A stretch of 64,000 nt of DNA from assembly GCA_902532525.1 (NCBI GenBank), contig CACAIK010000002.1, positions 82,899-146,898 on the forward strand. Direction: 5' to 3'. Source of the stretch: an uncultured Pelagibacteraceae bacterium. GTDB taxonomy: Bacteria > Pseudomonadota > Alphaproteobacteria > Pelagibacterales > Pelagibacteraceae. The first letter of the stretch is position 1, and each line of letters begins with the position of its first letter. This document shows, piece after piece, positions 30,048 through 49,244 of this stretch. The notes beneath the pieces were generated by a model. It was not told the DNA's origin and did no database searches. It saw only the letters and a list, made by a program, of their open reading frames with translations. The position numbers and the translations under genes were made by a program.

Positions 30048-30048
30048 T

Positions 30049-31077: not shown

Positions 31078-31079
31078 AT

Positions 31080-31994: not shown

Positions 31995-31998
31995 TTAA

Positions 31999-32460: not shown

Positions 32461-32482
32461 TAAAAGATTATATTACATAAAA

Positions 32483-32514
32483 AAAAAGGGTGGAATAAAA
32501 ATTCCACCCTTTTT
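32483..32514 (-). terminator. strong intrinsic terminator after the ribose-type binding protein gene
   Basis: Fourteen-base stem AAAAAGGGTGGAAT/ATTCCACCCTTTTT with a four-base loop. On the minus strand it is followed by a run of T. It lies 20 bases after the binding-protein stop codon (32534) and before the mutarotase gene. Confidence 0.88.
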
Positions 32515-32533
32515 AAATGTTATATACTAATGA

Positions 32534-33466: not shown

Positions 33467-33475
33467 AAATTTCCC

Positions 33476-33573
33476 CTTTAATAATTATTAAAGCTTAATT
33501 TAATAAAATTTTTAAAAAAAATTCAACTGTTTACAGGGTCTCTTATGATAGCATCTATTCAACTTTGACGTGT
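33476..33573 (-). promoter_or_regulatory. possible promoter/operator region of the ribose-type binding protein gene
   Basis: The 107 bases between the permease stop and the binding-protein start hold an 18-base perfect palindrome (CTTTAATAATTATTAAAG, 33476-33493) just upstream of the Shine-Dalgarno, and a possible -35 TTGAAT with AT-rich -10 candidates. The gap is large for this genome, so a separate promoter is likely. No known operator is recognised. Confidence 0.35.
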
Positions 33574-34587: not shown

Positions 34588-34588
34588 T

Positions 34589-35338
34589 TTATTTTTTTCC
34601 CATAATCCAACCAATGACTTCATCTCTTGAAGTTTTATCTAATTGAGACTCAGCAAAGTTTGTTCCTTGAAAAAGTGCCATTACTCTGTCGCAAACAGTA
34701 AAAATATCATCCATTCTATGACTTATTACTATAACACCTACGCCAGTACTCTTTAATTTATTAATTAAGTCTAATACTTTTCCAACTTCTTTTATTGCTA
34801 AAGCTGCAGTTGGTTCATCCATTATAACAACTTTAGCATTAAATGCTGTTGACCTAGCTATCGCAACTGCTTGTCTTTGTCCTCCAGATAATTCCTCCAC
34901 TTTTTGGTCAGCACTTTTAACATTTATTTTTAGTTTCTCTAAGTGAGCACTAGTCATTTCTTGAATTTTTTTAAAATCTAGAAATTTTAAGAAGCCAATA
35001 TTTTTTGTAGGCTCTCTTCCTAAGAATATATTTTCTCCAATGGGTAAATTACCTGCCAATGCAAGATCTTGATAAACCATTTCTAAACCTAAATTTTGAG
35101 AGTCTTTTGGGCTATCTAATATATGTTCTTTGCCCTCGAAAAATAAAGCGCCTGCACTCGGTTTGTACAAACCAGATAAAACTTTCATTAGTGTAGATTT
35201 GCCTGCACCATTATCTCCCACAACACCTAAACATTCACCTTCGTGTACTTTTAAATTTACATTTTCTAGAGCAGTTATTGTTCCAAAATACTTTGTGATA
35301 CCTTTAGCCTCTAAGAGCAATTTATTTGTTGAAGTCAT
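34589..35338 (-). CDS. single-domain sugar ABC transporter ATP-binding protein
   Basis: 249 residues with one nucleotide-binding domain: Walker [11 protein letters not shown], signature SGGQRQA, Walker B VVIMDEPTAALA. Sugar importers such as E. coli RbsA normally carry two such domains; this one has a single copy, as in FrcA-type systems, and would act as a homodimer. It starts with ATG 22 bases after the dehydrogenase gene. Together with the permease and binding protein it makes a complete importer. Confidence 0.9.
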   Translation of the reverse strand: MTSTNKLLLEAKGITKYFGTITALENVNLKVHEGECLGVVGDNGAGKSTLMKVLSGLYKPSAGALFFEGKEHILDSPKDSQNLGLEMVYQDLALAGNLPIGENIFLGREPTKNIGFLKFLDFKKIQEMTSAHLEKLKINVKSADQKVEELSGGQRQAVAIARSTAFNAKVVIMDEPTAALAIKEVGKVLDLINKLKSTGVGVIVISHRMDDIFTVCDRVMALFQGTNFAESQLDKTSRDEVIGWIMGKK

Positions 35339-35360: not shown

Positions 35361-36380
35361 TTAATTAATTGCAACAGGTTTTGACCTTAAAAGATGAACA
35401 GTTTTTCTTAGAGCTTTTTTACAAAATCTTGGATTAAGATTTTTTGAAATTAATTTCATATCTTCAAAAACAATATTGCCCATTTCCTTGAATGCCTCGT
35501 CTAAAGCACCCGCTCTATGTGCAGAAAATAAAACATTTTTTAATTTTCTTATTGGGTCATTTTTTTTAACTGGTTCTTCCGGAAAAACATCAAGCGCTGC
35601 ATAAATATCACCTTTTTTAAGCCTATTTTTTAAATCTTCAAAGTTAACAACTGCAGCTCTACTCATTAATATAAAAAGTGAGTTCGATTTCATAAGATTG
35701 AGTAATTTTTTATTAATCAGTCCTTTGTTTTTTGTAGTAATTGCAGCAAGCACATAAATAACTTCGCATTCTTTAAACATTTTTTTTAAAGTAATTGGTT
35801 TAAATCCTTGATTAATAATTTTTTTGTTTGGTATCCAAGGATCATAGATATTTATTTTACTCGAAAATGGTTTCAATAATGGAACCAAAGCTTTCCCTAG
35901 GTCTCCAAATCCCAATAATCCAATTTTTTTGTCTGATAATAATGAAGCCTTAAGATTTCCATCTAATCCATACTTTTCCTTTTTATTAATGAAATCCTGA
36001 TTTGCTCCATGAATATTTCTAAGAAGAGAAAGTGTAAATCCAAGAGCAATTTCTGCGACTGGTTTCGAGAAAACGGGTGAAGTTGCAATAACATGAATAC
36101 CTTTATCAAAGCAATAATTATAATCCATATTATCTAGAAAGTTACTTTCGACATTTATTACTGCTTTCAACTTTTTTGCTTTCATTAATAAAAATTTAGG
36201 AAGATTAGGCTGTCCAATTATAAATTTCGCTTTATGAATATTATTAATATAAAATTTTTGTTTATTTGTTTTTGGTGCGAAAATAAGATTAAATTTATTT
36301 TTTAACTCATTTAATTTAGGTTTTGAAAAAATAAGCTCCATGGTTCTTGGATATGGATCAACAATTGCAATATCTTTCAT
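35361..36380 (-). CDS. D-isomer-specific 2-hydroxyacid dehydrogenase
   Basis: 339 residues. The NAD motif is GLLGFGDLGKAL, with the catalytic Arg in MSRAAVVNFEDL, Glu in FPEEPV and His in FSAHRAG. Members reduce 2-oxoacids or oxidise D-2-hydroxyacids, including hydroxypyruvate. It lies between Gfo/Idh and ABC genes, three bases from the Gfo gene. I infer a possible hydroxypyruvate reductase or sugar-acid dehydrogenase role in the inositol pathway. Confidence 0.87.
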   Translation of the reverse strand: MKDIAIVDPYPRTMELIFSKPKLNELKNKFNLIFAPKTNKQKFYINNIHKAKFIIGQPNLPKFLLMKAKKLKAVINVESNFLDNMDYNYCFDKGIHVIATSPVFSKPVAEIALGFTLSLLRNIHGANQDFINKKEKYGLDGNLKASLLSDKKIGLLGFGDLGKALVPLLKPFSSKINIYDPWIPNKKIINQGFKPITLKKMFKECEVIYVLAAITTKNKGLINKKLLNLMKSNSLFILMSRAAVVNFEDLKNRLKKGDIYAALDVFPEEPVKKNDPIRKLKNVLFSAHRAGALDEAFKEMGNIVFEDMKLISKNLNPRFCKKALRKTVHLLRSKPVAIN

Positions 36381-36383
36381 GAT

Positions 36384-37538
36384 CTATAAGAGAATTTTTT
36401 TTACTTCTTCTTCTGTAAATCTTTTTGGCTTTTCACACTTAGTTTTTATTTTTTGAGGTACTCCAGTTGTTGCGGCTTTCATAGTAGACTCAATTATATC
36501 TAAAACATGAAGAGATAGTTCTCCTGAACATCGATGTTTTTTCTTTTTTTCAATTGAATATAACATCTCAGACATTCCAACACTTCTATAGTTAGCATTT
36601 GTTGGTGACTCATTGGATCTACCACTTGCAGATGTAACATTTATTTTTCCTAAATGCATTTTATCAGTTTTATGTTCGCCCCAACGACCACCTTCAGTAA
36701 CAGAAATATAAACAGATCCACCAAACATATTTGGATCAGGAACAATAATTGAACCTTTAGTTCCATAAAGTTCCATATGATTTCTTTGATGATTTATCAC
36801 ATCAAAGGATAAAGTGACTTGAATAATTGCTTCATTATGAAATTGAATCGTTGCTAAATAAGTTGTTGGTGTTTCAACCTTAAATGTTTTTCCTTTATTT
36901 GGACCTGCTCTATAATTTCTTCTTTTAAATGCCGTTAATGTTCTTCCTTGCACCTGCTTAGCTGGACCTAATAGATTAACAAGCGTTGTAAAAAAATAAG
37001 GACCCATATCTATGACTGGTCCTCCCTCTTTTTTATACCAAGACTCTGGTTTTGGATGAAAGTTTTCAACACCAGGAAATGCAAAGATTGCGTTTCCAAG
37101 TTTGATTTGTCCAATTAAATCAGAGTCGATTAATTCCTTTGCTTTTTGTCCACCTCCTCCAAGAAAAGTATCTGGCGCATTACCAATGTATAATTTTTTT
37201 TGTTTTGCCAAAGCCACTAGCTCTTTTCCTTTTTGAAAGTATGTTGCTAATGGTTTTTCTGAATAAACATGCTTTCCTGCGTTTAATACTTTTTTTGACA
37301 CAGAATAATGTGATTGAGGAATTGTTAAATTTAAAATTACCTCGATATCTTTATCTTTTAGTATTTCATTAACAGTCATTGATTTGATGTTGTATAATTT
37401 TGCACATTTTTCAGCTGCTTTTTGATTAATATCTGCACAAGCAATAATTTTGAAATTATTAAAATGTTGGTGTCCTCTAAAATATGTTTCTGCGATATGG
37501 CCACATCCTATGAGACCAACCTTAAAAACTTTATTCAT
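36384..37538 (-). CDS. Gfo/Idh/MocA family oxidoreductase
   Basis: 384 residues. The N-terminal Rossmann motif is VGLIGCGHIAETYFRG, with the catalytic lysine motif YSEKPLA and the second-domain KEGGPVIDMGPYF. It oxidises or epimerises a sugar or cyclitol with NAD(P). It starts six bases after iolD and is therefore likely in inositol or related-cyclitol use, such as scyllo-inositol or an inosose. Sequence does not fix the substrate. Confidence 0.87.
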   Translation of the reverse strand: MNKVFKVGLIGCGHIAETYFRGHQHFNNFKIIACADINQKAAEKCAKLYNIKSMTVNEILKDKDIEVILNLTIPQSHYSVSKKVLNAGKHVYSEKPLATYFQKGKELVALAKQKKLYIGNAPDTFLGGGGQKAKELIDSDLIGQIKLGNAIFAFPGVENFHPKPESWYKKEGGPVIDMGPYFFTTLVNLLGPAKQVQGRTLTAFKRRNYRAGPNKGKTFKVETPTTYLATIQFHNEAIIQVTLSFDVINHQRNHMELYGTKGSIIVPDPNMFGGSVYISVTEGGRWGEHKTDKMHLGKINVTSASGRSNESPTNANYRSVGMSEMLYSIEKKKKHRCSGELSLHVLDIIESTMKAATTGVPQKIKTKCEKPKRFTEEEVKKILL

Positions 37539-37543
37539 GAATT

Positions 37544-39388
37544 TTAGACACCTTGTCTTTGCTTAGATTTTCCTTCTTTATGAAGTTTTAATGCCTCTTC
37601 ATTTTCTTTTGTAGATGGCATTTCTAAAGTAGGACTTTCCCAATAAGCTGAACCTTCTAGCCACTCATAAGAATGAGTTTTTATTGAAATTAAGTAAGTC
37701 ACATCAGATTTTTTAGCTCTTTTAAATGCTTCCTCTAATTCAGAAATAGATGATACCTCCTCAGATTTTGCACCCATACTCTCTGCATGTTTAGCAAAAT
37801 TAACAGGGACTAGATTTGGAGCTTTTGAACTATTAAATAGACAATTAAATTCTTTTCCACCTTTAAATAATTGTAGCCTATTAATAACGGCATGGCCTCC
37901 ATTATCACATAAAACTATTATTAATTTATTATTTGTTATAACTGATGAATAAATATCTGAATTAAAAAGTAAATAAGATCCATCTCCTACAAAAGCTATT
38001 ACTTCTTTATCTGGGTTGGCCATTTTAACTCCTAATGCACCAGAAATTTCATAACTCATACAACTAAAACCCCATTCGGTTTCATGTGTATTTAATTCTT
38101 TTGGCCTCCAAATTTGTACAACTTCTCCAACCAATCCCCCTGCAGCGGTAACAGCAATGTCTGTTGGATCTGAATTACGATATATTGCTCCTACAGCATG
38201 TGCATAACTAGGTAGTTCTTGATTTGTTGGACCGCTTTCTTTATCTACATAATCATTCCAATTTTTTAATTCATCTCTTGATTTTTTATGCCATTCATCA
38301 GGTGCTTTCCAATCTCCCAAGGCATTTGATAGCTCTTGTAAGCTTACTTTTGCATCACCTATTACTGATTGCGCCAAATGCTTACTGGCATCAAATCTAG
38401 AGACATTAACACTAACAAGTGAAAAGTCTGGGTTCTCAAAATTTGCCCACGAACCAGTTGTGAAATCAGCTAACTTTGTTCCAACAGCAATAGCTAGGTC
38501 AGTTTGTTTTGCTAAATTATTTGCTGCTTTGCCACCAAGACCACCTATGGGACCTAAGAAATGAGAGTGGTCTCTCTTCATTGTAGAGTAGCCCATAACT
38601 GTTTGTGTAACTGGTATATTGTGTTTAATTGCAAAATTACTTAGATCTTCCATTGCATCAGAGTAGAAAACCCCTCCACCTGAAATCAATAAAGGATTTT
38701 TAGATATTTTAATTTGCTCAGCTGCTTGTTTTATTTGAAAATCATCGGGTCTTGGTCGTCTAATATTGTGAACTCTCTCTTTAAAAAATTCTTCAGGATA
38801 TTCATATGTTTCACCTTGAACATCTTGTGATAATGATAAGCAAGCAGGTCCACAATCTGCTGGGTCTAACATTGTTTGGATTGCTTGAGGTAATGTTTGT
38901 AAAATTTGTTCTGGTCTTGTAATTCTATCAAAATATTTTGTTACTGGCTTGAAAGCATCATTCTGAGTAATGCCAGGATTATTAAAATGCTCAACTTGTT
39001 GAAGAACTGGGTCAGGCATTCTGTTTGCATATGTGTCTCCAGGTAAAAATAAAATTGGTAATCTGTTGCTCATAGCAACAGCCGAGGCTGTAACCATATT
39101 TGTAGATCCTGGTCCAACTGAACTAGTTGCAACAAAAAATTGTTTTCTTCTTTTAGCTCTAGCATATGCTATTCCAGTCAGAGCCATATTTTGCTCATGA
39201 TGCCCTCTATAAGTTGGTAATTTATCTTGATTTTCTTGTAGAGCTTGTCCTAAACAAGCAACATTGCCATGTCCAAAAATACCAAAAGCTCCAGCAAATA
39301 ACTGCTCTTTTTTACCGTCTATTAAAATTTTTTGAGCAATAAGATGTTTTATTATTGCATGTGCACAAGTGAGCTTTATTTTTTTCAT
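37544..39388 (-). CDS. iolD: trihydroxycyclohexane-1,2-dione hydrolase
   Basis: 614 residues, a thiamine-diphosphate enzyme. The N-terminal half has FGIFGHGNVACLGQAL and ATSSVGPGSTNMVTA, and the cofactor motif is FVGDGSYLLFNSDIYSS. The overall pattern matches IolD, which opens the ring of 3D-trihydroxycyclohexane-1,2-dione to give 5-deoxyglucuronate. Length is close to known IolD proteins. It starts a minus operon and is divergent across 52 bases from the aldehyde dehydrogenase operon. Acetolactate synthase is a less likely alternative, because the N-terminus is IolD-like. Confidence 0.88.
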   Translation of the reverse strand: MKKIKLTCAHAIIKHLIAQKILIDGKKEQLFAGAFGIFGHGNVACLGQALQENQDKLPTYRGHHEQNMALTGIAYARAKRRKQFFVATSSVGPGSTNMVTASAVAMSNRLPILFLPGDTYANRMPDPVLQQVEHFNNPGITQNDAFKPVTKYFDRITRPEQILQTLPQAIQTMLDPADCGPACLSLSQDVQGETYEYPEEFFKERVHNIRRPRPDDFQIKQAAEQIKISKNPLLISGGGVFYSDAMEDLSNFAIKHNIPVTQTVMGYSTMKRDHSHFLGPIGGLGGKAANNLAKQTDLAIAVGTKLADFTTGSWANFENPDFSLVSVNVSRFDASKHLAQSVIGDAKVSLQELSNALGDWKAPDEWHKKSRDELKNWNDYVDKESGPTNQELPSYAHAVGAIYRNSDPTDIAVTAAGGLVGEVVQIWRPKELNTHETEWGFSCMSYEISGALGVKMANPDKEVIAFVGDGSYLLFNSDIYSSVITNNKLIIVLCDNGGHAVINRLQLFKGGKEFNCLFNSSKAPNLVPVNFAKHAESMGAKSEEVSSISELEEAFKRAKKSDVTYLISIKTHSYEWLEGSAYWESPTLEMPSTKENEEALKLHKEGKSKQRQGV

Positions 39389-39440
39389 TATTCTATATAT
39401 AAATATTTAACTTTTAACAATTAAACACAATTTAAAAAAT

Positions 39441-40883
39441 ATGTATAGCAATTTTGGTCAATTCATTAATGGTCAGTGGCAACAAGCAGAAAAAAAAGAA
39501 ACTTATAAAGTTATCAATCCAGCAACAGAAGAAGTTTTAGGAGAAGCATCAAAAGCATCGTCTGTTGACGTTCAAAAAGCATTAAAATCAGCAGAGAAAG
39601 GACTCGAAACTTGGAAAAATACTACTCCATGGCAAAGGTCTTATGTAATAAGAAAAATTGCAGATTTGATGCGTGAAAGAAAAGATGTATTGGCCAAATG
39701 GCTTACACTTGAAGTTGGAAAACCTCTTAAAGAAGCAATTGGAGAAGTTGGTGGTGGAGCAGATATATTTGAATGGAATGCAGAAGAAACTAAAAGAATT
39801 TATGGTGAAACATTACAAAGTAGATTTCCAGAAACAAGAGTTCATGTTTACTATCAGCCAGTAGGTGTTGTAGCAGCACTTGTGCCATGGAATTTTCCTA
39901 TAGTTTTAGCATCTAGAAAAATTTCAACTGCACTGGCTGCTGGTTGTTCAGTTATTTGTAAACCAGATGTGATTACGCCTGGAGCAGTTATGGAACTTGT
40001 AAATATTTGTAAAGATGCTGGAGTTCCTGATGGAGTAGTCAATTTATTATCTGGAGACCCAGCTGAAATATCAAATGAATTACTTGAATCAGATATAATA
40101 AAAAAAGTTTCTATAACTGGCTCAACACGTGTTGGAAAATTAATACTTAAAAAAGCTGCAGATAAAGTTCAAAGAGTTACAATGGAATTAAGTGGTCATT
40201 CTCCATTTATAGTATTTGACGATGTTGACATGAATAAAGTTGCAGATATGGCAATAACAGCAAAATTTCGTAACAATGGTCAAGTTTGTATATCCCCAAA
40301 TAGGTTTTATATTCAAGAAACAAGAAAAGAAGAATTTATAAACGCTTTCGTAGATAGAGCAAAAAAATTAAAAATTGGAAATGGTATGGATGAAGGCACT
40401 GACTTAGGACCTTTAACAACAGCAAAACGTTTGGAGGAGATTGAAAAATTAGTTGAAACGACAAAGAGTGAAGGCGCAAAAGTTGTTTTAGGTGGGGGTA
40501 GACCTTCAGGATTTAATAAAGGTTATTATTTTGAACCAACTGTATTTGATGAAGTGCAGGACAATTTTACAATTATGAAAGAAGAACCTTTTGGTCCCTT
40601 AGTGCCCGTTTTAACTTTCAAGGATTTTGACGAAGTAGTAGAGAGAGCAAATAATAATGACCTGGGGCTTTGTAGCTATTTATATACAAACTCAATGGAC
40701 AAAGCTAATAGGGCATCAGAGATGATGGAAACCGGTTGTGTAGCAGTAAATACAGCTGCAGTTGCAGTTGCTGAAGCTCCATTCGGTGGAATAAAACAAA
40801 CCGGTTATGGTCGTGAAGGTGGATCTATGGCTATAAAAGATTACCTTAATATAAAGTATACCCATATGGGTCTCAAAACCTGA
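39441..40883 (+). CDS. NAD(P)-dependent aldehyde dehydrogenase
   Basis: 480 residues. Catalytic Cys is in NNGQVCISPNRF, the general-base Glu in MELSGHSPF, and the cofactor loop in SITGSTRVGK. It resembles succinate-semialdehyde and lactaldehyde dehydrogenases, without the CoA-acylating MmsA/IolA hallmark that I would expect for malonate-semialdehyde dehydrogenase. It is the first gene of a plus operon next to iolD. I infer that it may oxidise a sugar-acid aldehyde such as 5-deoxyglucuronate. Confidence 0.88.
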   Translation: MYSNFGQFINGQWQQAEKKETYKVINPATEEVLGEASKASSVDVQKALKSAEKGLETWKNTTPWQRSYVIRKIADLMRERKDVLAKWLTLEVGKPLKEAIGEVGGGADIFEWNAEETKRIYGETLQSRFPETRVHVYYQPVGVVAALVPWNFPIVLASRKISTALAAGCSVICKPDVITPGAVMELVNICKDAGVPDGVVNLLSGDPAEISNELLESDIIKKVSITGSTRVGKLILKKAADKVQRVTMELSGHSPFIVFDDVDMNKVADMAITAKFRNNGQVCISPNRFYIQETRKEEFINAFVDRAKKLKIGNGMDEGTDLGPLTTAKRLEEIEKLVETTKSEGAKVVLGGGRPSGFNKGYYFEPTVFDEVQDNFTIMKEEPFGPLVPVLTFKDFDEVVERANNNDLGLCSYLYTNSMDKANRASEMMETGCVAVNTAAVAVAEAPFGGIKQTGYGREGGSMAIKDYLNIKYTHMGLKT

Positions 40884-40887
40884 CTTA

Positions 40888-41679
40888 ATGAGAAAAAATA
40901 AAGCCAAAGAAATAATTAAAAATGGCAAAGCTGTAATCAATGGTTGGTTACAAATTCCAAGTACTGTTTCGGCAGAAACAATGGCTCAACAAGGATGGGA
41001 TTCATTAACAATTGATATGCAACACGGGCTCGTTGATTACACGAATGCAATGCCAATGATGCAAGTGATTTCAGCGACTGAAGTCGTGCCTTTGGCAAGA
41101 GTTAATTGGAATGAACCTGGTCAAATTATGAAAATTTTAGATGCCGGATGTTATGGAATCATTTGCCCAATGGTAAGTAATCGAAATGAAGCAGAAAGAT
41201 TTGTTCAAGCATGTAAATATCCACCAGATGGATATAGAAGTTTCGGTCCAATGAGAGGGTTAATCTATGGAGGACCTGATTATGGAGATCATGCAAACGA
41301 TGAAATATTAAAAATGGCTATGATTGAAACTAAAGAAGCTTTAGAAAATCTTGATGAAATTATGAGTACCCCAGGCCTTGATGGAATCTATATAGGGCCC
41401 GCTGATTTAAGTTTGGCTATAGGAGAAAAGCCTGGTTTTGACAAAGGTGAAGATACTAAAGCTTATTCAGAAATACTTAGAATATTAGAGCATGCAAAAA
41501 AAAATAATATATTTGCTGGAATTCATAACGGAAGCACTGACTATGCAAAAAAAATGATTGAAAAAGGTTTTCAATTTGTAACAGTTGGAGCAGACTCCAG
41601 ATTTATAAGTTCGGGTGCGAAAAATACAGTTGAAAATTTAAAAGGCACAGTGAAATCAGAATTATCTAAAGCCTATTAA
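40888..41679 (+). CDS. HpcH/HpaI aldolase family protein
   Basis: 263 residues. The TIM-barrel class II pyruvate aldolase signs are LTIDMQHGLVD (catalytic His), ARVNWNEPG (Arg) and MIETKEALENLDEI (metal-binding Glu) with IYIGPADLSLAIG. Members cleave 4-hydroxy-2-oxoacids, and some use hydroxypyruvate as well as pyruvate. It starts four bases after the aldehyde dehydrogenase. The substrate in this operon is unknown; see the inositol hypothesis. Confidence 0.88.
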   Translation: MRKNKAKEIIKNGKAVINGWLQIPSTVSAETMAQQGWDSLTIDMQHGLVDYTNAMPMMQVISATEVVPLARVNWNEPGQIMKILDAGCYGIICPMVSNRNEAERFVQACKYPPDGYRSFGPMRGLIYGGPDYGDHANDEILKMAMIETKEALENLDEIMSTPGLDGIYIGPADLSLAIGEKPGFDKGEDTKAYSEILRILEHAKKNNIFAGIHNGSTDYAKKMIEKGFQFVTVGADSRFISSGAKNTVENLKGTVKSELSKAY

Positions 41680-41703
41680 TAAATAAAGTATAAACTTTTA
41701 CTT

Positions 41704-42663
41704 ATGAAAAAAATCTTAATAATAGGATCGATACATAATCATGGTATTGATTTACTAAAAGGAAATAAAAAATTTGAATTTGAAGTTGTAGACAATACAG
41801 ATACAGAATTTTTGAAAGATAAAATAAAAGACTGTGATGGAATAAGTATTAGAACATCTAAATTGTCAAAAGAAATTATAGACTCAGCTAAGAATTTAAA
41901 AGTGATATCTAGACATGGTGTAGGCTATGACAATATAGATCTTAAAGCAACCAAGCAAAACAATATCACATTAGCAATAACAGCTACAGCAAATGCTCAA
42001 GCTGTAGCAGAACATGTTTTATTCATGCTATTCAGCATTGCAAAAAGAAATAATATGTACAACGAGACTGTAAAAACTGGAAAGTTCAGTGATAGAACTA
42101 AGCTTCCTAAAACAATTGAGTTATGGAATAAAAGTATCTTAATTGCAGGTTTTGGTCGAATTGGAAAATGCTTACTTAAAAAATGTAAGGGTTTAGAAAT
42201 GAACATTTTTGTTTATGATCCTTTTGTCAGCGAAGAGGAAATTAAAAAAGTTGGTGGTACTAAAATTAATGATTTAAATGAGAGTTTAAATAAAATGGAT
42301 GCAATTTCAATTCATATGCCTCTAAACGAAAATACAAAACATTTAATCAATTATGAAATGATAAAAAAAATGAAAAAAAATTGTATTTTAATTAATGCTG
42401 CAAGAGGTGGTATTATTAACGAGGAAGATCTTAATAAGGCATTAAATGAAGATTTAATTTTTGGTGCAGGGCTTGATGTTTTTGAAAAGGAGCCTCCATC
42501 TTTAGATAATCCATTGCTAAAAAATAAGAAAGCATTTTTAAGCCCTCATTCAGCAGTATTTACCGAAGAATGTTTGTCTAGAATGGGTATTGAAACAGTC
42601 CAAAATATTATTGATTTTTTTGACAATAAATTGGAAAAGTCAAAAATAGTAAAAATCTCATGA
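41704..42663 (+). CDS. D-isomer-specific 2-hydroxyacid dehydrogenase
   Basis: 319 residues. NAD-binding GFGRIGKCL, catalytic Arg in NAARGGIINEEDL, Glu in FEKEPPSLDNP, and His in LSPHSAVFTEE are in place. It is closer to SerA-type phosphoglycerate/2-hydroxyacid dehydrogenases than the one at 35361. It follows the aldolase by 24 bases and overlaps the next gene by four. Its place beside aldehyde dehydrogenase and aldolase suggests it oxidises a sugar diacid or reduces the aldolase product. Confidence 0.87.
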   Translation: MKKILIIGSIHNHGIDLLKGNKKFEFEVVDNTDTEFLKDKIKDCDGISIRTSKLSKEIIDSAKNLKVISRHGVGYDNIDLKATKQNNITLAITATANAQAVAEHVLFMLFSIAKRNNMYNETVKTGKFSDRTKLPKTIELWNKSILIAGFGRIGKCLLKKCKGLEMNIFVYDPFVSEEEIKKVGGTKINDLNESLNKMDAISIHMPLNENTKHLINYEMIKKMKKNCILINAARGGIINEEDLNKALNEDLIFGAGLDVFEKEPPSLDNPLLKNKKAFLSPHSAVFTEECLSRMGIETVQNIIDFFDNKLEKSKIVKIS

Positions 42664-43160
42664 GCTTAAAATTAAAAAATTTTGGATTGTTAGAGTTTCT
42701 TATCATTATATCAGCTGTTTATGTGGTAGGAATGTTGATATGGACAGCGAGTACAAGGCCTGAAGTTGAAGCTCGTGCAAATTTAGTAAAAGAAAATCAT
42801 AAAAAAGTTGTCGATTTTATTAATGGCGAAATTAATAATTGTGGAAATAATGATGAAGGGAAGATAACAGTTTGGGGTGATCCATGTAATGCTGAATGGA
42901 TAGCTGAAAAGGTTGTTAATCATATAAATGATAATCTTAAGATTGAAAATCCATTTTCAGATGACAATAAAGTTAAAACAGACCCTGACCCAAGAATAAA
43001 AGCAGAAGGAAAAGCTGGTCAGTCAGTTGAAATGGGAGTTATTTTTATAATGTCATCAAATTTTTTAGCAGAACCAGGATCAGAATGGATAGTTGGTACT
43101 TGTTTTAAATCTCCATGTGTTGCTGCTGGTAATAATGAATTAACTTCTTTATATAGATAG
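42660..43160 (+). CDS. membrane-anchored protein with pilin-like N-terminus
   Basis: 166 residues, single N-terminal hydrophobic helix (about 8-30), then a soluble domain, so probably anchored at the inner membrane with the rest in the periplasm. The start of the helix (FGLLEFLIII) copies the type IV pilin pattern FTLIELLIVI with Glu at +5, but the residue before the Phe is Asn, not the Gly that prepilin peptidase needs. Four cysteines (NNCGN, DPCNA, GTCFKSPC) could make disulfides. It overlaps the dehydrogenase by four bases (ATGA). I do not recognise the family. Confidence 0.55.
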   Translation: MSLKLKNFGLLEFLIIISAVYVVGMLIWTASTRPEVEARANLVKENHKKVVDFINGEINNCGNNDEGKITVWGDPCNAEWIAEKVVNHINDNLKIENPFSDDNKVKTDPDPRIKAEGKAGQSVEMGVIFIMSSNFLAEPGSEWIVGTCFKSPCVAAGNNELTSLYR

Positions 43161-44063
43161 CTAATTATTTTCAATTTCTAAATTTGCACTTTTTAAAGTT
43201 TCAATTAGATATTTGTATCCAATTTTAGCATATTCAAAAGGATTTGCTTTTGCTGGATCTTGCTCCGCTTCTACAACTAACCATCCAGAATAATTTTGTT
43301 CTTTTAACAATTCAAAAAAAGGCTTGTAATCAATGCAACCATCTCCTGGAACAGTGAAGGCTCCTTCCAAAAAGGCCTGTCTAAAACTATAATCGTGATT
43401 TAACGAATTATCTAAAACATTTTTTCTCATATCTTTGCAATGTATATGAATTATTCTTTCTTTAAATTCTTTATAAATTTTCAAACTATCTCCTTTTGCG
43501 AATAACATGTGTCCAGTATCTAAAGTTAGTTTGACACTACCATCTGTGTTTTCTAATAATCTTCTTGTATCTTCTTCACTTTCAATGCAAGTTCCCATAT
43601 GATGATGGTAAGCAAGAGGCATGTCTTGGTCCTCTAGATATTTTCCCATTTCTGAAATTTTTTTATAATATTTTTTAGACTCGTCTAAATCCATTCTAGG
43701 TCTTTTAGACAGATTTATATTTGGATCACCTTGAATAGAACCATAAACTTCGGCAAAAACCATGCAGGGCGCTTTACAATCTTGAAATAGTTTCAATTGG
43801 TTTTGAATTTTTGATTTTTCCTCTTCAAAAGTATTTTTTCTTAAATTTGCTCCATACCAACCTGAGCATAATTTTAAATTATATTTATTTAATATAGGAA
43901 TTAATTCTTTTGATGTTTTTGGAAATTTCCCCCCAGACTCTATTCCTTTAAATCCTGCTTCACTAGCTTCGGAAAGACATTGTTCAAGCGGAGTATCACC
44001 ACCAAGCTCAGGCATGTCATCATTGCTCCAAGCTATTGGGGCTATACCTAATTTTACTGACAT
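43161..44063 (-). CDS. iolE: myo-inosose-2 dehydratase
   Basis: 300 residues. The N-terminus IAPIAWSNDDMPELGGDTPLE is the family signature of IolE, followed by the TIM-barrel isomerase-like core with AYHHHMGTCIE (metal site), TLDTGHMLFA and HCKDMRK. IolE dehydrates 2-keto-myo-inositol to the dione that IolD then hydrolyses. It is convergent with the pilin-like gene (no gap) and divergent from the Gfo/Idh gene across only 26 bases. Confidence 0.92.
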   Translation of the reverse strand: MSVKLGIAPIAWSNDDMPELGGDTPLEQCLSEASEAGFKGIESGGKFPKTSKELIPILNKYNLKLCSGWYGANLRKNTFEEEKSKIQNQLKLFQDCKAPCMVFAEVYGSIQGDPNINLSKRPRMDLDESKKYYKKISEMGKYLEDQDMPLAYHHHMGTCIESEEDTRRLLENTDGSVKLTLDTGHMLFAKGDSLKIYKEFKERIIHIHCKDMRKNVLDNSLNHDYSFRQAFLEGAFTVPGDGCIDYKPFFELLKEQNYSGWLVVEAEQDPAKANPFEYAKIGYKYLIETLKSANLEIENN

Positions 44064-44089
44064 AAATAATAGTTTTGTTATGATATTAG

Positions 44090-45235
44090 ATGCTTCAAAA
44101 AATTAAACCTAAAAAATTTAAACTTGGAATTGTTGGAGGCGGACCTGGATCTTGGATTGGGCATGTTCATAGAATTTCATCTAGATATGATGACAAATAT
44201 GAAATCGTTGCAGGGGTATTTTCTAGAAGTGTTGATAAATCTAGGAAATTTGGACAAAGTATAGGCTTAGATAAATCGAGATGTTATTCAAATTACAAGG
44301 AGATGTCTGAAAAAGAAGCGAAAAGAAAAGATGGTATTAATGTAGTAGCAATAATGACTCCACCATCAAGTCATCAAATTATTGCAGAGAATTTTATAAA
44401 AAAAAATATACATGTAATTTCAGACAAGCCATTTGCTGGAAATCTTGAGCAGGGAAAAAAACTTTATAAAGCAATTAAAAATAACAAAAAAATTAAATAT
44501 GCACTGACTCACAACTATTCATCTTATCCAATGGTAAGAGAAGCAAAAAATTTAGTGGAAAAAGGAAAAATTGGAAAAGTTGAATATATCAATGTTGAAT
44601 ATATTCAGGATTGGACGGATGGTAATAAAATTTCAAAAACAAATTCAAAAAAGGTTTTTAAATGGAAAGTTGATAAAAAAATTGTTGGTGTATCAGCAGT
44701 TCTCAATGAAATAGGATCACACGCATATCATCTAGCAATTTATATTACAGGCCTTAAAGGAGAAAAACTGATTGCCGATGTAAGTAAATATTCGAAGGAC
44801 GTTAATATGGATAATAACGCACAAGTTTTTGTTAATTTTAATAATGGTGCTAAAGGAATTGTATGGACATGTGTAACAGCTAAAGGTGGTGTTTATGGTT
44901 TAAGAATTAGAGTATATGGGTCTAAAGGAAGTTTAGAATGGGTTCAAAATGATCCAAATTATCTAAAATTTAATCCAAGCAAAGGAGCAGTAAAGTTTTT
45001 AGAAAGAGGATATACAAAGGCAAATTTTTCAAAAAAATTTTCTAGAGTAAAATTTGGTCACCCTGAAGGATATTTAGATGCTTTTGCAAATATATATAAG
45101 GAATTTGCTGAATATTTAAAAACAAATACAAAAAAAAGATTTTATTTTCCTAACGAAGAAGAAGGTTTGGAGACTGCTAAATTCATTGATGCATGCAAGA
45201 AATCATCATTAAAAAAACAATGGGTAAAAATTTAA
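44090..45235 (+). CDS. Gfo/Idh/MocA family oxidoreductase
   Basis: 381 residues. Rossmann motif LGIVGGGPGSWIGHVH, catalytic Lys in ISDKPFAG, and second-domain LNEIGSHAYHLA. It differs from canonical IolG and fits the group of sugar/inositol dehydrogenases acting on other inositol isomers or epimers. It overlaps the following IolG-like gene by 16 bases. The preceding gap is only 26 bases, so the promoter probably lies partly inside iolE. Confidence 0.85.
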   Translation: MLQKIKPKKFKLGIVGGGPGSWIGHVHRISSRYDDKYEIVAGVFSRSVDKSRKFGQSIGLDKSRCYSNYKEMSEKEAKRKDGINVVAIMTPPSSHQIIAENFIKKNIHVISDKPFAGNLEQGKKLYKAIKNNKKIKYALTHNYSSYPMVREAKNLVEKGKIGKVEYINVEYIQDWTDGNKISKTNSKKVFKWKVDKKIVGVSAVLNEIGSHAYHLAIYITGLKGEKLIADVSKYSKDVNMDNNAQVFVNFNNGAKGIVWTCVTAKGGVYGLRIRVYGSKGSLEWVQNDPNYLKFNPSKGAVKFLERGYTKANFSKKFSRVKFGHPEGYLDAFANIYKEFAEYLKTNTKKRFYFPNEEEGLETAKFIDACKKSSLKKQWVKI

Positions 45236-46233
45236 TTAACGTAGCATTATTCGGTTTGGGAAGAATAGGACTAATGCATGCAAATAATTTAATAAATAAT
45301 AAAAATTTTAATCTTAAATATATTTTTGATGTTAATAGAAAACTTGCAAAAAAAGTTTCAAAAAATCTAAATTGTCAAAATATTGAAAGCCCTCAAATAG
45401 CATATAAAGATAAAAAAATTGATTGTATTTTTATATCTTCTATTACATCAACTCATCTTAAATTTATATATGAAAGTATAAAAAGTAATAAAACAGTATT
45501 TTGTGAAAAACCTTTAGATTTAAATTTAAAAAAAATTCAAAATTACGAAAAAAAAATAAATAAATTTAATCATAAAATTCAAATTGGATTTAATAGGAGA
45601 TACGATCCAGGTCACAGTTCTCTAAAAAGTAATTTAATAAAAGGCAAAATAGGAAAGCTAGAGAAAATTATTATTACTAGCAGAGATCCGGCTGCTCCAT
45701 CTATAAATTATTTAAAGGCTTCAGGTGGTATTTTTAAAGATATGATGATCCATGATTTCGATCTAGCAAGATATTATGCAGGTAAAGATGAATTTGTTTC
45801 TATATTTGCTACAGGGAGTAATATTTCTAATAAATACTTTAATAAACTTAAAGATTTTGAGCTTGCTACTGCAATTTTGAAAACAAAAAATGGTGTTCAA
45901 TGTATTATAAGTAATTCGAGACATTGTAGTTTTGGATATGATCAAAGAGTAGAGCTCTTTGGAAGTAAAGGAATGATTATTTCTGATAATATCAAAGAAA
46001 ATGAGATTAGTTTGTATTCTAATAAAAGTACGAATGCACGTTCAAGCTTTAAACATTTTTTTATAGAAAGATACGATCAGGCATACAAAGAACAATTAAA
46101 TGATCTTGCCAAATTATTTAAATCAAATTCGAGACCTAAAAGTGGTTTTATTGATGGAAAGATTTCAATTCAAATTGCTGAAAGTGCTATCAGGTCATTA
46201 AAATCAAAAAAGTTTGAAAAAATAAAATACTAG
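45220..46233 (+). CDS. iolG: myo-inositol 2-dehydrogenase-like (Gfo/Idh/MocA)
   Basis: 337 residues from ATG 45220 (MGKNLINVALFGLG); an upstream ATG at 45193 would sit within the previous gene. It matches IolG: ALFGLGRIGLMHANNL, CEKPLDL (catalytic Lys), IQIGFNRRYDPG, ITSRDPAAPS and GGIFKDMMIHDFDLARY. It oxidises myo-inositol to 2-keto-myo-inositol, step one of the pathway. The short C-terminal part is normal for the family. It is followed by the transporter genes after a weak hairpin. Confidence 0.85.
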   Translation: MGKNLINVALFGLGRIGLMHANNLINNKNFNLKYIFDVNRKLAKKVSKNLNCQNIESPQIAYKDKKIDCIFISSITSTHLKFIYESIKSNKTVFCEKPLDLNLKKIQNYEKKINKFNHKIQIGFNRRYDPGHSSLKSNLIKGKIGKLEKIIITSRDPAAPSINYLKASGGIFKDMMIHDFDLARYYAGKDEFVSIFATGSNISNKYFNKLKDFELATAILKTKNGVQCIISNSRHCSFGYDQRVELFGSKGMIISDNIKENEISLYSNKSTNARSSFKHFFIERYDQAYKEQLNDLAKLFKSNSRPKSGFIDGKISIQIAESAIRSLKSKKFEKIKY

Positions 46234-46338: not shown

Positions 46339-47262
46339 ATGAAAAAAATAAAGAACTTTATATTAGCTGTTGCTGCATGGGCAATGATGTCTGTATCAGC
46401 ATTAGCAACTGATATAATTGTTGTTTCACATGGACAAGCTAATGACCCTTTTTGGTCGGTAGCTAAAAATGGAGTTGATGCTGCTTGTAAAGATATGGGA
46501 GTATCTTGCAAATACACTGCGCCTGGAACTTTTGACATGGTTGAAATGGCAAAACTAATTGATAACGCTGTATCACAAAAACCAAAAGGTATTGTAATTA
46601 CTTTGCCTGATGCAGCTGCATTAGGAAAATCTGTTAAAGCAGCAATAGCTGCTGGTATACCAGTAGTCTCTATGAACTCTGGTTCGGATGACTATGCATC
46701 ATTAGGGATTAGTGCACACGTAGGTCAAACTGAATTTGAAGCTGGCGTTGGTGGCGGACAAAAAATGAAAGCTGCTGGAGGAAAAAAAGCTTTATGCGTT
46801 AACCACGAAGTTGGAAACGTAGCGCTTGATAGAAGATGTGCAGGTTTCAAAAAAGGTTTTGGTGGATCTGTTGATATTCTTGGAACATCAAATGACCCAA
46901 CTGAAATTCAAAAAGCTGTTGCTGCAAAATTAGGTGGTGGATATGACACTATTCTAACTTTAGGAGCTGGTTTATCTGGTGAAGCAGCACTAAAAGCTTT
47001 AGAAGCTGCTGGTAAAGTTGGAAATGTTAAATTAGGAACATTTGATATGTCACCTAACATGTTAAAAGCTGCTGCTGCAGGTAAAGTAGAGTTTTTAATT
47101 GACCAACAACAGTATCTACAAGGTTATTTGCCTATAGCTATTTTTGCTCAGTACATGAGATGGGGAACAATGCCTGCTGGTGTAGTTATGACTGGACCTG
47201 GATTTGTTACTCCTGATAATGCTGCTAAAGTAATTAAATGGGCAGCTCAAGGTTATAGATAA
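46339..47262 (+). CDS. sugar/inositol ABC transporter substrate-binding protein
   Basis: 307 residues. A signal peptide (about 1-24, ending ALA) precedes a periplasmic binding protein with VVSHGQANDPFWSVAKNGVD, MVEMAKLIDNAVSQ and GIVITLPDAAALG. It belongs to the CUT2 group near FrcB. The position after IolE/IolG suggests an inositol or related cyclitol ligand, which is inference. A good Shine-Dalgarno precedes it and a strong terminator follows, so it is probably far more abundant than the membrane parts. Confidence 0.87.
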   Translation: MKKIKNFILAVAAWAMMSVSALATDIIVVSHGQANDPFWSVAKNGVDAACKDMGVSCKYTAPGTFDMVEMAKLIDNAVSQKPKGIVITLPDAAALGKSVKAAIAAGIPVVSMNSGSDDYASLGISAHVGQTEFEAGVGGGQKMKAAGGKKALCVNHEVGNVALDRRCAGFKKGFGGSVDILGTSNDPTEIQKAVAAKLGGGYDTILTLGAGLSGEAALKALEAAGKVGNVKLGTFDMSPNMLKAAAAGKVEFLIDQQQYLQGYLPIAIFAQYMRWGTMPAGVVMTGPGFVTPDNAAKVIKWAAQGYR

Positions 47263-47273
47263 AATCTATATTT

Positions 47274-47308
47274 AAGGCCTGACTAAATTTTATAGTCAGG
47301 CCTTTTTT
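47274..47308 (+). terminator. strong intrinsic terminator after the inositol-type binding protein gene
   Basis: Twelve-base stem AAGGCCTGACTA/TAGTCAGGCCTT with a seven-base loop; the stem runs into six T. It lies 11 bases after the binding-protein stop codon and ten bases before the permease ATG, which has no evident Shine-Dalgarno. Confidence 0.92.
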
Positions 47309-47318
47309 CAAAATATAA

Positions 47319-48446
47319 ATGTCATTAAAATCAAAAAGTATTTCATCAAAAAGTAGTCTTAATGAAGACGAGCGTCTAAAAAAAATATCACCACTAAGAG
47401 TTTTATTGAATAGGCCTGAGTTAGGTGCATTAGGTGGATCAATACTTGTATTTATATTTTTTGGAATCGTAGCTGGTGATACTGGTATGTTTAGCGCCTA
47501 TGGAATGCTTAATTTCCTCGATGTTTCAGCTAATTTAGGAATTATAGCAATAGCAGCAGCGATGTTAATGATTGGCGGTGAATTTGATTTGTCAATTGGA
47601 TCAATGATTGGCTTTGCTGGAATTTGTATTGCAATTCCTGCAATTTACTGGGGTTGGCCTTTATGGATGAGTATAATTTTTGCTTTCGCTATGGCAGTAT
47701 TGGTTGGATACTTTAATGGAATAATGGTCGTCAAAACTGGTTTGCCATCTTTTATTGTAACACTTGCAATGCTTTTTATTTTAAGAGGTTTGACATTAGC
47801 AATAACAAGATTGATTACTGGTAGAACTCAAGTTCCAGGACTAAGAGTATTAATTGAAGATGATCCATTAGCTTGGTTATTTGCTACAGATACTTTTAAA
47901 TGGCTTTTTACTTGGTTGGGATCATTAAAATTAATTGAACTAAGAACTGATGGAACTCCTCTTGCAACTGGAATACCTCCATCAGTTATTTGGTTTATTG
48001 CATTAACATTGTTTGCAACATGGATATTGATGAAAACAAGATACGGGAATTGGATCTTCGCATCTGGAGGCGATAAGGTTGGAGCAACAAATGTGGGTGT
48101 GCCTGTTGGAAGGGTAAAAATAAGTCTATTTATTGGTACGGCAGTCGCTTCTACTATTTTTGCTTGTATTCAAGTATTAGATGCGGGTTCTGCAGATACT
48201 ATGAGAGGTACTTTAAAAGAACTAGAAGCTATTGCAGCTGCTGTTGTTGGTGGGTGTCTCTTAACTGGAGGGTATGGATCTGCAATAGGTGCTGCTTTTG
48301 GTGCAATTATATTTGGCACTGTATCTATGGGAATATTTTATACAGATGTTGACACTGATTGGTTTAAAGTTTTCTTAGGAGCAATGATGTTGATAGCTGT
48401 AGTGTTTAATAACTATATCAGAAAGAAAGTGACTGAAAGTAAATAA
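47319..48446 (+). CDS. sugar/inositol ABC transporter permease (CUT2 type)
   Basis: 375 residues with about ten membrane helices. Motifs [16 protein letters not shown] and [16 protein letters not shown] match RbsC/FrcC-type permeases. The N-terminal 30 residues are polar and cytoplasmic ([19 protein letters not shown]). The C-terminal [18 protein letters not shown] loop is the ATPase contact region. The stop codon overlaps the ATPase start by one base. Confidence 0.9.
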
Positions 48447-49244
48447 TGTCAGACTATCTCGTTCAATTTAATAATATTAGTAAGTTTTTTGGGAAGGTAA
48501 TAGCGCTTAAAGATGTCACTATGAGATTAAAAAAAGGTGAGATCATGTGCTTACTTGGAGATAATGGAGCAGGAAAGTCGACTTTAATTAAAACTTTAGC
48601 AGGTGTTCATAAGCCTGATGAAGGAGAAATTATATTTGAGGATAATAAAATTGTTTTTGACTCACCTAAAGATGCTTTAGATATTGGTATAGGAACAGTT
48701 TATCAAGATCTAGCATTAGTTCCTTTAATGAGTGTTACTAGAAATTTTTTTATGGGAAGAGAGCCTCAAAAAGGTATTCCTTTCCTTAAAACTTTTGATG
48801 TGGAGACAGCAAATAAGATAGCAGCAGATAGAATGGGACAGATTGGTATCGATGTTAGAGATCCATCTCAGGCAGTTGGAACTATGTCCGGTGGTGAAAG
48901 ACAATGCCTAGCAATATCAAGAGCTATATATTTTGGAGCAAAAGTTTTAGTTTTAGATGAACCAACTTCTGCTTTAGGAGTTCATCAAGCATCAATGGTA
49001 TTAAAATATATTGTAAAGGCTGCGTCTGAGGGATTGGCTGTAATTTTAATTACTCATAATGTACATCATGCTTACCCTGTTGGTAATAGTTTCACTGTAC
49101 TTAACCGAGGAAAAAGCATGGGAACATTCCAAAAAAAAAGAGATTTCTAGAGAAAAGCTTCTTAGTATGATGGCTGGTGGTGAAGAATTAGACAAACTTG
49201 AAGTCGAACTTCAAGAAATGGATAGAATTCACAACAAAAATTAG
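48446..49244 (+). CDS. sugar/inositol ABC transporter ATP-binding protein, frameshifted as sequenced
   Basis: A single-domain FrcA-type ATPase of about 265 residues if repaired. Walker A is [10 protein letters not shown], signature SGGERQ, Walker [12 protein letters not shown]. As written the frame stops at 49150, after [15 protein letters not shown]. In the next frame the expected family C-terminus ([18 protein letters not shown]) continues to 49244. Nine A at 49131-49139 in place of eight explain the break. The ABC core is before the break, so a truncated 234-residue product may still be made. Confidence 0.88.
49131..49139 (+). other. frameshift site in ABC ATPase (A9 run)
   Basis: Nine A after CAttcc-type coding; removing one A joins the two reading frames in the order expected from related ATPases (GTFQKK then EISREKLL). 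Confidence 0.8.

What the first reader, a model, noticed from the sequence alone, without database searches (positions are those of the whole stretch)
35361..46233. Possible phosphorylation-free myo-inositol pathway
Seen: IolG, IolE and IolD are present, but I find no IolB, IolC or IolJ in the window. Divergent from iolD, and adjacent to each other, are an aldehyde dehydrogenase, an HpcH-type aldolase and a D-2-hydroxyacid dehydrogenase. A second D-2-hydroxyacid dehydrogenase follows iolD. Inference: the IolD product 5-deoxyglucuronate could be oxidised to 5-deoxyglucarate, then at C2 to a 4-hydroxy-2-oxoacid, and cleaved to hydroxypyruvate plus malonate semialdehyde. Hydroxypyruvate would then be reduced to glycerate. 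Each step matches one neighbouring gene class, and no kinase is needed.
Basis: partly seen in the sequence, partly recalled or inferred. Interest (0 to 1): 0.75.

Follow-up and report, generated by a model that had tools for sequence, protein, structure and literature searches.

The report
Kinase-free inositol pathway in SAR11
In this SAR11 ocean bacterium the genes for the first steps of inositol breakdown sit beside genes for an aldehyde dehydrogenase, an aldolase and a hydroxyacid dehydrogenase, while searches of its draft genome and of two single-contig relatives found neither the usual isomerase nor the usual kinase, so it likely finishes inositol breakdown by a predicted route that needs no phosphate.

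Summary
IolD, IolE and IolG lie at the stated place; an aldehyde dehydrogenase (ALDH), an HpcH-type aldolase and a D-2-hydroxyacid dehydrogenase (HADH) run divergently from iolD. The order is not chance: in 80 related loci iolD-ALDH-HpcH holds wherever the contig reaches. IolB was found in 0 of 47 same-genus genomes and IolC in 0 of 15, two of them single-contig. IolA is present elsewhere. The same ALDH-HpcH-HADH set stands near iolD on plasmids of Rhizobium, Paracoccus, Acidiphilium and Pantoea. The aldolase's nearest solved relative, by sequence and predicted fold, is SwHKA, which accepts hydroxypyruvate.

Nothing was assayed. Glycerate as the end is weakest: no MOFRL-type glycerate kinase in 15 genomes; serine may be the exit. 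Against it: equally near HpcH relatives sit in likely pyruvate-forming clusters, and HADH is not always adjacent. Ten paper searches showed me no description. New variant of a known kind.

The parts
37544..39388 (-). iolD, THcHDO hydrolase (decyclizing), predicted to give 5-deoxyglucuronate
   Evidence: TIGR04377 796.8 bits, cut-off 715
39389..39440 (.). 52-base divergent intergenic stretch between iolD and the ALDH gene
   Evidence: sequence
39441..40883 (+). ALDH, SSADH-like; predicted to oxidise C1 of 5-deoxyglucuronate to 5-deoxyglucarate
   Evidence: PF00171 541 bits; TIGR01780 496.6, below cut-off 646; 264 bits to IolA/MMSDH, below 448.5
40888..41679 (+). HpcH/HpaI class II aldolase; predicted to split 3,4-dihydroxy-2-oxoadipate into hydroxypyruvate and malonate semialdehyde
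   Evidence: PF03328 113.5 bits; nearest PDB SwHKA; H46 R71 E147 D173 conserved in 105 of 105 same-genus rows, 87 of them distinct sequences
41704..42663 (+). HADH, NAD-type D-2-hydroxyacid dehydrogenase; predicted C2 oxidation (and/or hydroxypyruvate reduction)
   Evidence: PF02826/PF00389; R234 E263 H282 and Asp172 in 20 of 20 same-genus rows over 60% identical (window counted) and 9 of 9 plasmid modules
42660..43160 (+). p166, conserved protein of unknown function with a long N-terminal helix, in the compact clusters
   Evidence: no NCBIfam or Pfam match; 78-100% identical in relatives; model too poor to use
43161..44063 (-). iolE, myo-inosose-2 dehydratase
   Evidence: TIGR04379 398.7 bits, cut-off 290
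44090..45235 (+). second Gfo/Idh/MocA dehydrogenase (gfo2); absent from the most compact clusters
   Evidence: PF01408
45193..46233 (+). iolG, inositol 2-dehydrogenase
   Evidence: TIGR04380 352.4 bits, cut-off 355
46339..49150 (+). ABC transporter, rhizopine/inositol-like (binding protein, permease, ATPase)
   Evidence: NF052284 320.2 bits, cut-off 420; permease and ATPase 57 and 65% identical to those beside a classical iol cluster in G284
36384..37538 (-). gfo1, Gfo/Idh/MocA dehydrogenase behind iolD; present also in the compact clusters
   Evidence: PF01408
35361..36380 (-). HADH2, divergent D-2-hydroxyacid dehydrogenase; absent from the compact clusters
   Evidence: PF02826

Best explanation
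The locus encodes a likely phosphorylation-free branch of inositol breakdown, in which IolG, IolE and IolD would turn imported inositol into 5-deoxyglucuronate and the neighbouring aldehyde dehydrogenase, hydroxyacid dehydrogenase and HpcH aldolase are predicted to oxidise and split it into hydroxypyruvate and malonate semialdehyde. Shown: the genes, their intact catalytic residues, the conserved order iolD-ALDH-HpcH, and that searches found no IolB and no IolC. Inferred: (1) ALDH oxidises the C1 aldehyde to 5-deoxyglucarate; (2) HADH (or gfo1) oxidises C2, a D-type hydroxyl, to give 3,4-dihydroxy-2-oxoadipate; (3) HpcH, which needs a 2-oxoacid and has no dehydratase but IolE beside it in the compact cluster, cleaves C3-C4; (4) IolA, coded elsewhere in the genome, takes malonate semialdehyde to acetyl-CoA. 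Hydroxypyruvate would leave by reduction to glycerate or, perhaps likelier here, by transamination to serine.
Against: No assay, no growth data. The own genome is 86% complete, so absence rests on relatives. Aldolases as near to the window's (about 50-52%) as those of the plasmid iol modules (45-52%) occur in other settings: beside garD and a 2-hydroxy-3-oxopropionate reductase in Leisingera, beside a mandelate-racemase-type enzyme in Agrobacterium and Mesorhizobium, where pyruvate is the likely product. His213, in place of SwHKA's Phe210, is common in the wider family (36 of 38 other rows), so it does not mark this function; SwHKA's aldehyde-orienting Arg120 is not conserved. By recalled stereochemistry SwHKA's products are anti 3,4-diols, whereas glucose-type C3/C4 hydroxyls have the other relation. 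HADH directly follows HpcH in only 53 of 80 loci; in 3 of 22 relatives, and in single-contig G514, only 36-38% paralogues are near, and in G514 iolE and a close iolG are not within the 20 kb fetched (not sought elsewhere in it). G469 has no ALDH and only an iolE fragment in its cluster, G135 no HADH or iolE, Rhizobium NXC24 no ALDH found in the stretch. G135 and G190 have IolB elsewhere; P. ferrooxidans has the module and iolB/iolC together. ALDH is no closer to the plasmid ALDHs (41-43%) than to E. coli GabD (41%). One origin of the SAR11 and plasmid aldolases is neither shown nor rejected (AU p 0.30). Confidence lowered from 0.60 to 0.57 after G514 was read.
Confidence: 0.57

Rival explanations
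1. Dehydration route: ALDH makes 5-deoxyglucarate, an acid-sugar dehydratase removes water, and HpcH cleaves the 3-deoxy product to pyruvate and malonate semialdehyde; HADH does something else.
For: HpcH relatives sit beside garD or mandelate-racemase-type enzymes. A mandelate-racemase-type gene (PF13378) lies beyond rbsK or gfo1 in several clusters of relatives.
Against: That gene is not among the annotated genes of 27459-49150 in the window nor in the compact clusters of G327, G037 and G020. No dehydratase other than IolE lies in the compact cluster; dehydrogenases do.
Confidence: 0.14
2. Ordinary phosphorylated pathway with unrelated enzymes standing in for IolB, IolC and IolJ, for instance the ribokinase at 31080-31994 as kinase.
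For: Kinases matching the IolC model at E 0.001 occur in 31 of 31 genomes searched, and one stands in the iolD gene row. IolJ-type aldolases were not searched genome-wide.
Against: That kinase is over the ribokinase cut-off (312.2 of 299.65) and far under IolC (84.8 of 300). It is missing beside the compact clusters. It would leave ALDH, HpcH and HADH without a role.
Confidence: 0.13
3. ALDH, HpcH and HADH serve another sugar acid and merely neighbour iolD.
For: All three belong to broad families; some relatives carry other genes between HpcH and HADH, and in G514 iolE and a close iolG are not near.
Against: Unbroken iolD-ALDH-HpcH linkage, co-occurrence in the genus, the compact cluster of single-contig G327 that holds only iol genes, these three, gfo1, p166 and the transporter, and recurrence on plasmids.
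Confidence: 0.11

Closest known systems
Bacillus-type myo-inositol pathway (IolG-IolE-IolD-IolB-IolC-IolJ-IolA; IolC-DUF2090 fusion in many bacteria)
   Same: IolG, IolE, IolD and IolA are shared.
   Different: IolB and IolC were not found. From 5-deoxyglucuronate on, isomerase, kinase and phosphate-sugar aldolase would be replaced by ALDH, HADH and HpcH. DUF2090 as the common alternative aldolase is from PMC9007349 (passages).
SwHKA, hydroxyketoacid aldolase of Sphingomonas wittichii RW1 (PDB 6r62)
   Same: Closest solved relative by sequence and fold; catalytic His, Arg and metal-binding Glu, Asp kept.
   Different: 40% identity. Phe210 is His213, Arg120 is Met122. An HpcH gene on an RW1 plasmid lies among dioxygenase and hydrolase genes, not iol genes (whether it is SwHKA itself was not checked).
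Galactarate/glucarate route with GarL (recalled)
   Same: An oxidised C6 dicarboxylate cleaved by an HpcH-family aldolase to a C3 oxoacid plus a C3 semialdehyde.
   Different: GarL works behind a dehydratase and yields pyruvate; no such dehydratase is in the compact cluster, and the aldolase is far under the GarL cut-off (141.7 of 406.75).
Thermotoga inositol route via 5-keto-L-gluconate (recalled; an IolO model appears)
   Same: Also avoids IolB and IolC.
   Different: Uses no IolD (recalled); here IolD is over cut-off.

Membership tests
Bacillus-type inositol pathway | IolD and IolE | tested here: met
   796.8 of 715 and 398.7 of 290 bits
Bacillus-type inositol pathway | IolG | tested here: inconclusive
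   352.4 bits, cut-off 355; counterpart in G327 356.8
Bacillus-type inositol pathway | IolB isomerase | tested here: not met
   PF04962: none in own genome, 0 of 31, none in G327 and G417, 0 of 14; controls positive
Bacillus-type inositol pathway | IolC kinase (with or without DUF2090) | tested here: not met
   0 of 31 over the TIGR04382 cut-off; IolC-DUF2090 protein in 0 of 15 same-genus genomes, control G284 found
Bacillus-type inositol pathway | IolJ aldolase | not tested
   none among the annotated cluster genes; no genome search made
Bacillus-type inositol pathway | IolA (MMSDH) | tested here: met
   G000:C1:69684-71117, 708.3 bits, cut-off 448.5
HpcH/HpaI class II aldolases | Pfam HpcH_HpaI and catalytic His, Arg, metal Glu, Asp | tested here: met
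   113.5 of 25 bits; H46, R71, E147, D173
Hydroxypyruvate aldolases like SwHKA | use of hydroxypyruvate as donor | not testable with these tools
   only resemblance:
HpaI and GarL equivalogs | NCBIfam cut-off | tested here: not met
   163.6 of 368.8 and 141.7 of 406.75
IolA/MMSDH (for the ALDH at 39441) | TIGR01722 cut-off | tested here: not met
   264.0 of 448.5 bits
D-2-hydroxyacid dehydrogenases | Rossmann GxGxxG and Arg/Glu/His triad | tested here: met
   GFGRIG from residue 149, R234, E263, H282
iolD-linked ALDH-HpcH-HADH module of plasmids | ALDH, HpcH, HADH in a row near iolD | tested here: met
   window order
iolD-linked ALDH-HpcH-HADH module of plasmids | common descent of the aldolases | tested here: inconclusive
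   AU test p 0.301

The most novel reading that the evidence does not exclude
SAR11 turns inositol into serine: a phosphate-free pathway through 5-deoxyglucarate delivers hydroxypyruvate, which an AGXT-type transaminase makes into serine (and then glycine), so inositol meets the glycine/serine requirement of these cells, while malonate semialdehyde feeds acetyl-CoA. The same second way to break down inositol is spread on plasmids through rhizobia, paracocci, Acidiphilium and Enterobacterales, unseen because surveys ask for IolB and IolC.
Probability: 0.22. Interest if true: 0.86.

Novelty: new variant of a known kind. Interest (0 to 1): 0.72.

Why it matters
Inositol is a common plant-, algal- and lipid-derived compound (general knowledge), and IolB and IolC are taken as essential markers of its use: the large survey PMC9430895 counts a genome only with at least three of iolB, iolC, iolD, iolE in one cluster (passages), so this locus would be missed. 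If the reading holds, some of the most abundant cells in the ocean use inositol by chemistry that spends no ATP on phosphorylation and yields hydroxypyruvate, the immediate keto-precursor of serine, in a group reported to lack canonical serine and glycine synthesis (PMC6775983 and PMC12636525, passages). It would also give a natural role to a kind of aldolase that accepts hydroxypyruvate and that I met in the literature only in synthesis and mechanistic work (passages).

Tried and rejected
Association of IolB loss with an HpcH homologue over 56 iolD-bearing alphaproteobacterial genomes was only borderline (15 of 23 against 12 of 33, Fisher p 0.056), because HpcH homologues are widespread; I do not lean on it. 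Independent recruitment of HpcH in SAR11 and in the plasmid modules was tested and not supported (AU p 0.30). The Phe210-to-His change looked like a specificity mark but is general in the wider family. A model of p166 was too poor to search (mean pLDDT 48.6). Papers: in the listings of ten searches and the passages I read, nothing described this route; most listed papers were not opened. iolD with inositol and hydroxypyruvate gave 0 papers, 5-deoxyglucuronate with inositol 0, myo-inositol with SAR11 and catabolism 2: the SAR116 one mentions di-myo-inositol phosphate and a reference on it, the SAR86 one was seen in the listing only.
Full report
What is there. The window lies in a 1.18-Mb draft genome, 86% complete; the window is 30% GC. 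Loci nearly identical to it are titled uncultured Pelagibacteraceae, so this is SAR11; below, same-genus means the window's genus as coded by the genome search. Between 35361 and 49150 stand, on the minus strand, iolD, a Gfo/Idh dehydrogenase (gfo1) and a divergent 2-hydroxyacid dehydrogenase (HADH2), followed below 35338 by a ribose-type ABC transporter, FucU and a ribokinase; on the plus strand ALDH, HpcH aldolase, HADH and p166; then iolE (minus), gfo2, iolG and a rhizopine/inositol-like ABC transporter (plus). IolD and IolE pass the curated cut-offs; IolG misses by under 3 bits, while its counterpart in single-contig relative G327 passes.

Is the classical end of the pathway missing? IolB (PF04962) was not found in the own genome, in any of 31 same-genus genomes (own included; 23 with iolD, 8 without), in G327 and G417 or in 14 further same-genus genomes that carry HpcH: 0 of 47 distinct genomes, 38 of them with iolD or HpcH. 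Control genomes rang each time. A kinase matches the IolC model in 31 of 31 genomes but none passes the cut-off (best 99.7 of 300), and a real IolC-DUF2090 protein finds nothing in 15 same-genus genomes while it finds itself and four weaker kinases in its own genome. Two of those 15, G327 and G514, are single-contig genomes rated 99% complete; IolB is absent from both. In G150, a 1.41-Mb genome of another family (by its length I take it for HIMB59, recalled), PF04962 finds IolB (152.3 bits with the NCBIfam IolB model, under its cut-off of 205), next to an IolC-like kinase at 296.4 of 300 bits and a class II FBA-type aldolase, so the approach works in such genomes. IolJ itself was not searched. 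IolA passes its cut-off in the own genome and in 8 of the 9 other same-genus genomes given (G518 is the miss).

Is the neighbourhood more than chance? Of 121 genomes searched, own included, 23 have an IolD over cut-off, all in the own genus. In the 22 neighbourhoods other than the window's, iolD is followed divergently by ALDH and HpcH in 22 (one HpcH cut by a contig end). HADH over 60% identical is present in 16 of the 22; three have only 36-38% paralogues, one shows none in the stretch, two are cut. Among G000-G072, HpcH matches in 24 genomes and iolD in 23; 22 have both (one search does not list all its genomes without a match). The other three: G054 has HpcH cut by a contig end; G021's contig starts inside ALDH; G050's contig ends in a piece of iolD fused to a truncated ALDH, which looks like an assembly or amplification chimera. 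In 80 loci chosen by HpcH similarity alone, ALDH precedes HpcH in 76 and the locus ends in 4; iolD comes next in 72 and the locus ends in 4; HADH follows at once in 53, another gene in 27. In G327, G037 and G020 the cluster is stripped down to gfo1, iolD, ALDH, HpcH, HADH, p166, iolE, iolG and the three transporter genes; the ribose-type genes and HADH2 are not there. That compact form says which genes belong together. The other single-contig genome, G514, has rbs genes-HADH2-gfo1-iolD-ALDH-HpcH, then a six-gene insert and only a 37% HADH; iolE and a close iolG are not in the 20 kb read.

Beyond SAR11. In 385 Alphaproteobacteria, 56 have IolD over cut-off, 47 have a PF04962 match and 95 an HpcH match at 1e-40; 27 have both IolD and HpcH. 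In 5 of the 27 HpcH lies within 3 kb of iolD: G000, G327, G135, G190 and G469. G190 has the whole set, iolG-ALDH-HpcH-HADH-Gfo divergent from iolD-iolE; G469 lacks ALDH and has only an iolE fragment there, G135 has no HADH or iolE in the stretch. G135 and G190 have IolB elsewhere, G469 does not. On named plasmids I looked at 16 places in 15 records (re-read one). Nine show ALDH-HpcH-HADH in a row with iolD: Rhizobium leguminosarum, Paracoccus alcaliphilus, Acidiphilium multivorum, Qingshengfaniella alkalisoli, Rhizobium daejeonense, Shinella sp. WSC3-e (iolD 8 kb off), two Pantoea strains and Paracoccus ferrooxidans. Jiella pelagia has the set with iolD and ALDH each broken into two reading frames. 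Rhizobium sp. NXC24, unannotated, has HpcH, HADH and iolD but no ALDH match. Leisingera, Paraburkholderia, S. wittichii, Agrobacterium and Mesorhizobium have HpcH without iolD. Of the 60 iolD-bearing plasmid records listed (181 matched), at least 26 have an HpcH within 12 kb, 17 of them within 3 kb. In P. ferrooxidans iolB and iolC stand next door, so outside SAR11 the module can coexist with the classical genes and may serve another inositol isomer. In G150, HpcH (41% identical) adjoins iolG, iolE and an inositol-like transporter while a HADH adjoins iolD elsewhere.

How it most likely works. Chemistry narrows the choice. An HpcH aldolase needs a 2-oxoacid (recalled, and PMC7610986). 5-Deoxyglucuronate offers one only if C1 becomes a carboxylate and C2 a ketone. 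The compact cluster has an aldehyde dehydrogenase and a hydroxyacid dehydrogenase for exactly that, and no dehydratase but IolE. Cleavage between C3 and C4 then gives hydroxypyruvate and malonate semialdehyde. C2 of glucarate is a D-type (R) hydroxyl, which suits a D-2-hydroxyacid dehydrogenase (recalled). C2 oxidation with NAD is uphill (recalled) and would be pulled by the cleavage, or balanced if the same HADH also reduces hydroxypyruvate. I give this mechanism 0.57. Since SAR11 is reported to lack canonical serine and glycine synthesis (PMC6775983, passages) and some SAR11 genera carry an agxt transaminase suggested to relieve this (PMC12636525, passages), transamination of hydroxypyruvate to serine is an attractive exit; whether this genome has agxt was not tested.

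Against it. Aldolases as near to the window's as the plasmid-module ones sit in other pathways: beside garD in Leisingera, beside mandelate-racemase-type enzymes in Agrobacterium and Mesorhizobium. ALDH and HADH are ordinary members of large families; ALDH is no nearer to the plasmid ALDHs than to GabD, though G135's ALDH, 9 kb from iolD, is 50-56% identical to the window's or to the module's. Some SAR11 clusters carry an insert (PanB-like, unknown, DUF1907, PanE-like, two oxygenases) between HpcH and HADH. The plasmid aldolases form one clade (100/100), SAR11's another (100/99); whether they are sisters is open.

Novelty. In the listings of ten paper searches and the passages read I saw no description of this route. 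The survey of inositol clusters requires three of iolB, iolC, iolD, iolE (PMC9430895, passages) and would not count it. I call it a new variant of a known kind: the upper pathway is familiar, the lower half likely replaced.

Noticed in passing
class survey, 56 iolD-bearing alphaproteobacterial genomes: 23 of 56 have no PF04962 (IolB) match at all, several of them 94-99% complete, so IolB-less iolD loci are common and not all explained by HpcH beside iolD.
   Followed up: partly
L180:7065-8905: In G229 (no IolB match) a PfkB-like sugar kinase ORF of 312 aa (23% to the window's ribokinase) directly follows iolD-iolE; possibly a further variant of the lower pathway.
   Followed up: no
42660-43160: p166, a conserved protein with a long N-terminal helix and no family match, is part of the compact SAR11 inositol cluster.
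   Followed up: partly
L031:2053-6697: Insert between HpcH and HADH in relatives: PanB-like, DUF1907, PanE-like, 2OG-Fe(II) oxygenase and PhyH genes.
   Followed up: partly
L227:2160-9302; L228:5232-10532: A HIMB59-like genome (G150) has an IolB match, an iolC-like kinase and an FBA-type aldolase behind an SSADH-like ALDH and a gfo1 homologue, and separately HpcH beside iolG, iolE and an inositol-like transporter.
   Followed up: partly
L234:10313-17356: Single-contig G514 has iolD-ALDH-HpcH but no iolE or close iolG within the 20 kb read; where they lie is open.
   Followed up: partly
L232:2470-3723: G050: a piece of iolD is fused to a truncated ALDH at a contig end, probably a chimera.
   Followed up: partly
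52542-53949: A sequence that looks like glutamine synthetase (by eye) is split into two ORFs.
   Followed up: no
49268-50129: An EamA-like transporter (by eye) is split over two overlapping ORFs.
   Followed up: no
L211:4569-8990: Jiella pelagia: iolD and the module's ALDH each match in two pieces, in different frames or with a break.
   Followed up: no
29172-35338: The iolD gene row of the window and many relatives runs on into ribose-type ABC, FucU and ribokinase genes, which the compact clusters lack; what sugar this part serves is open.
   Followed up: no
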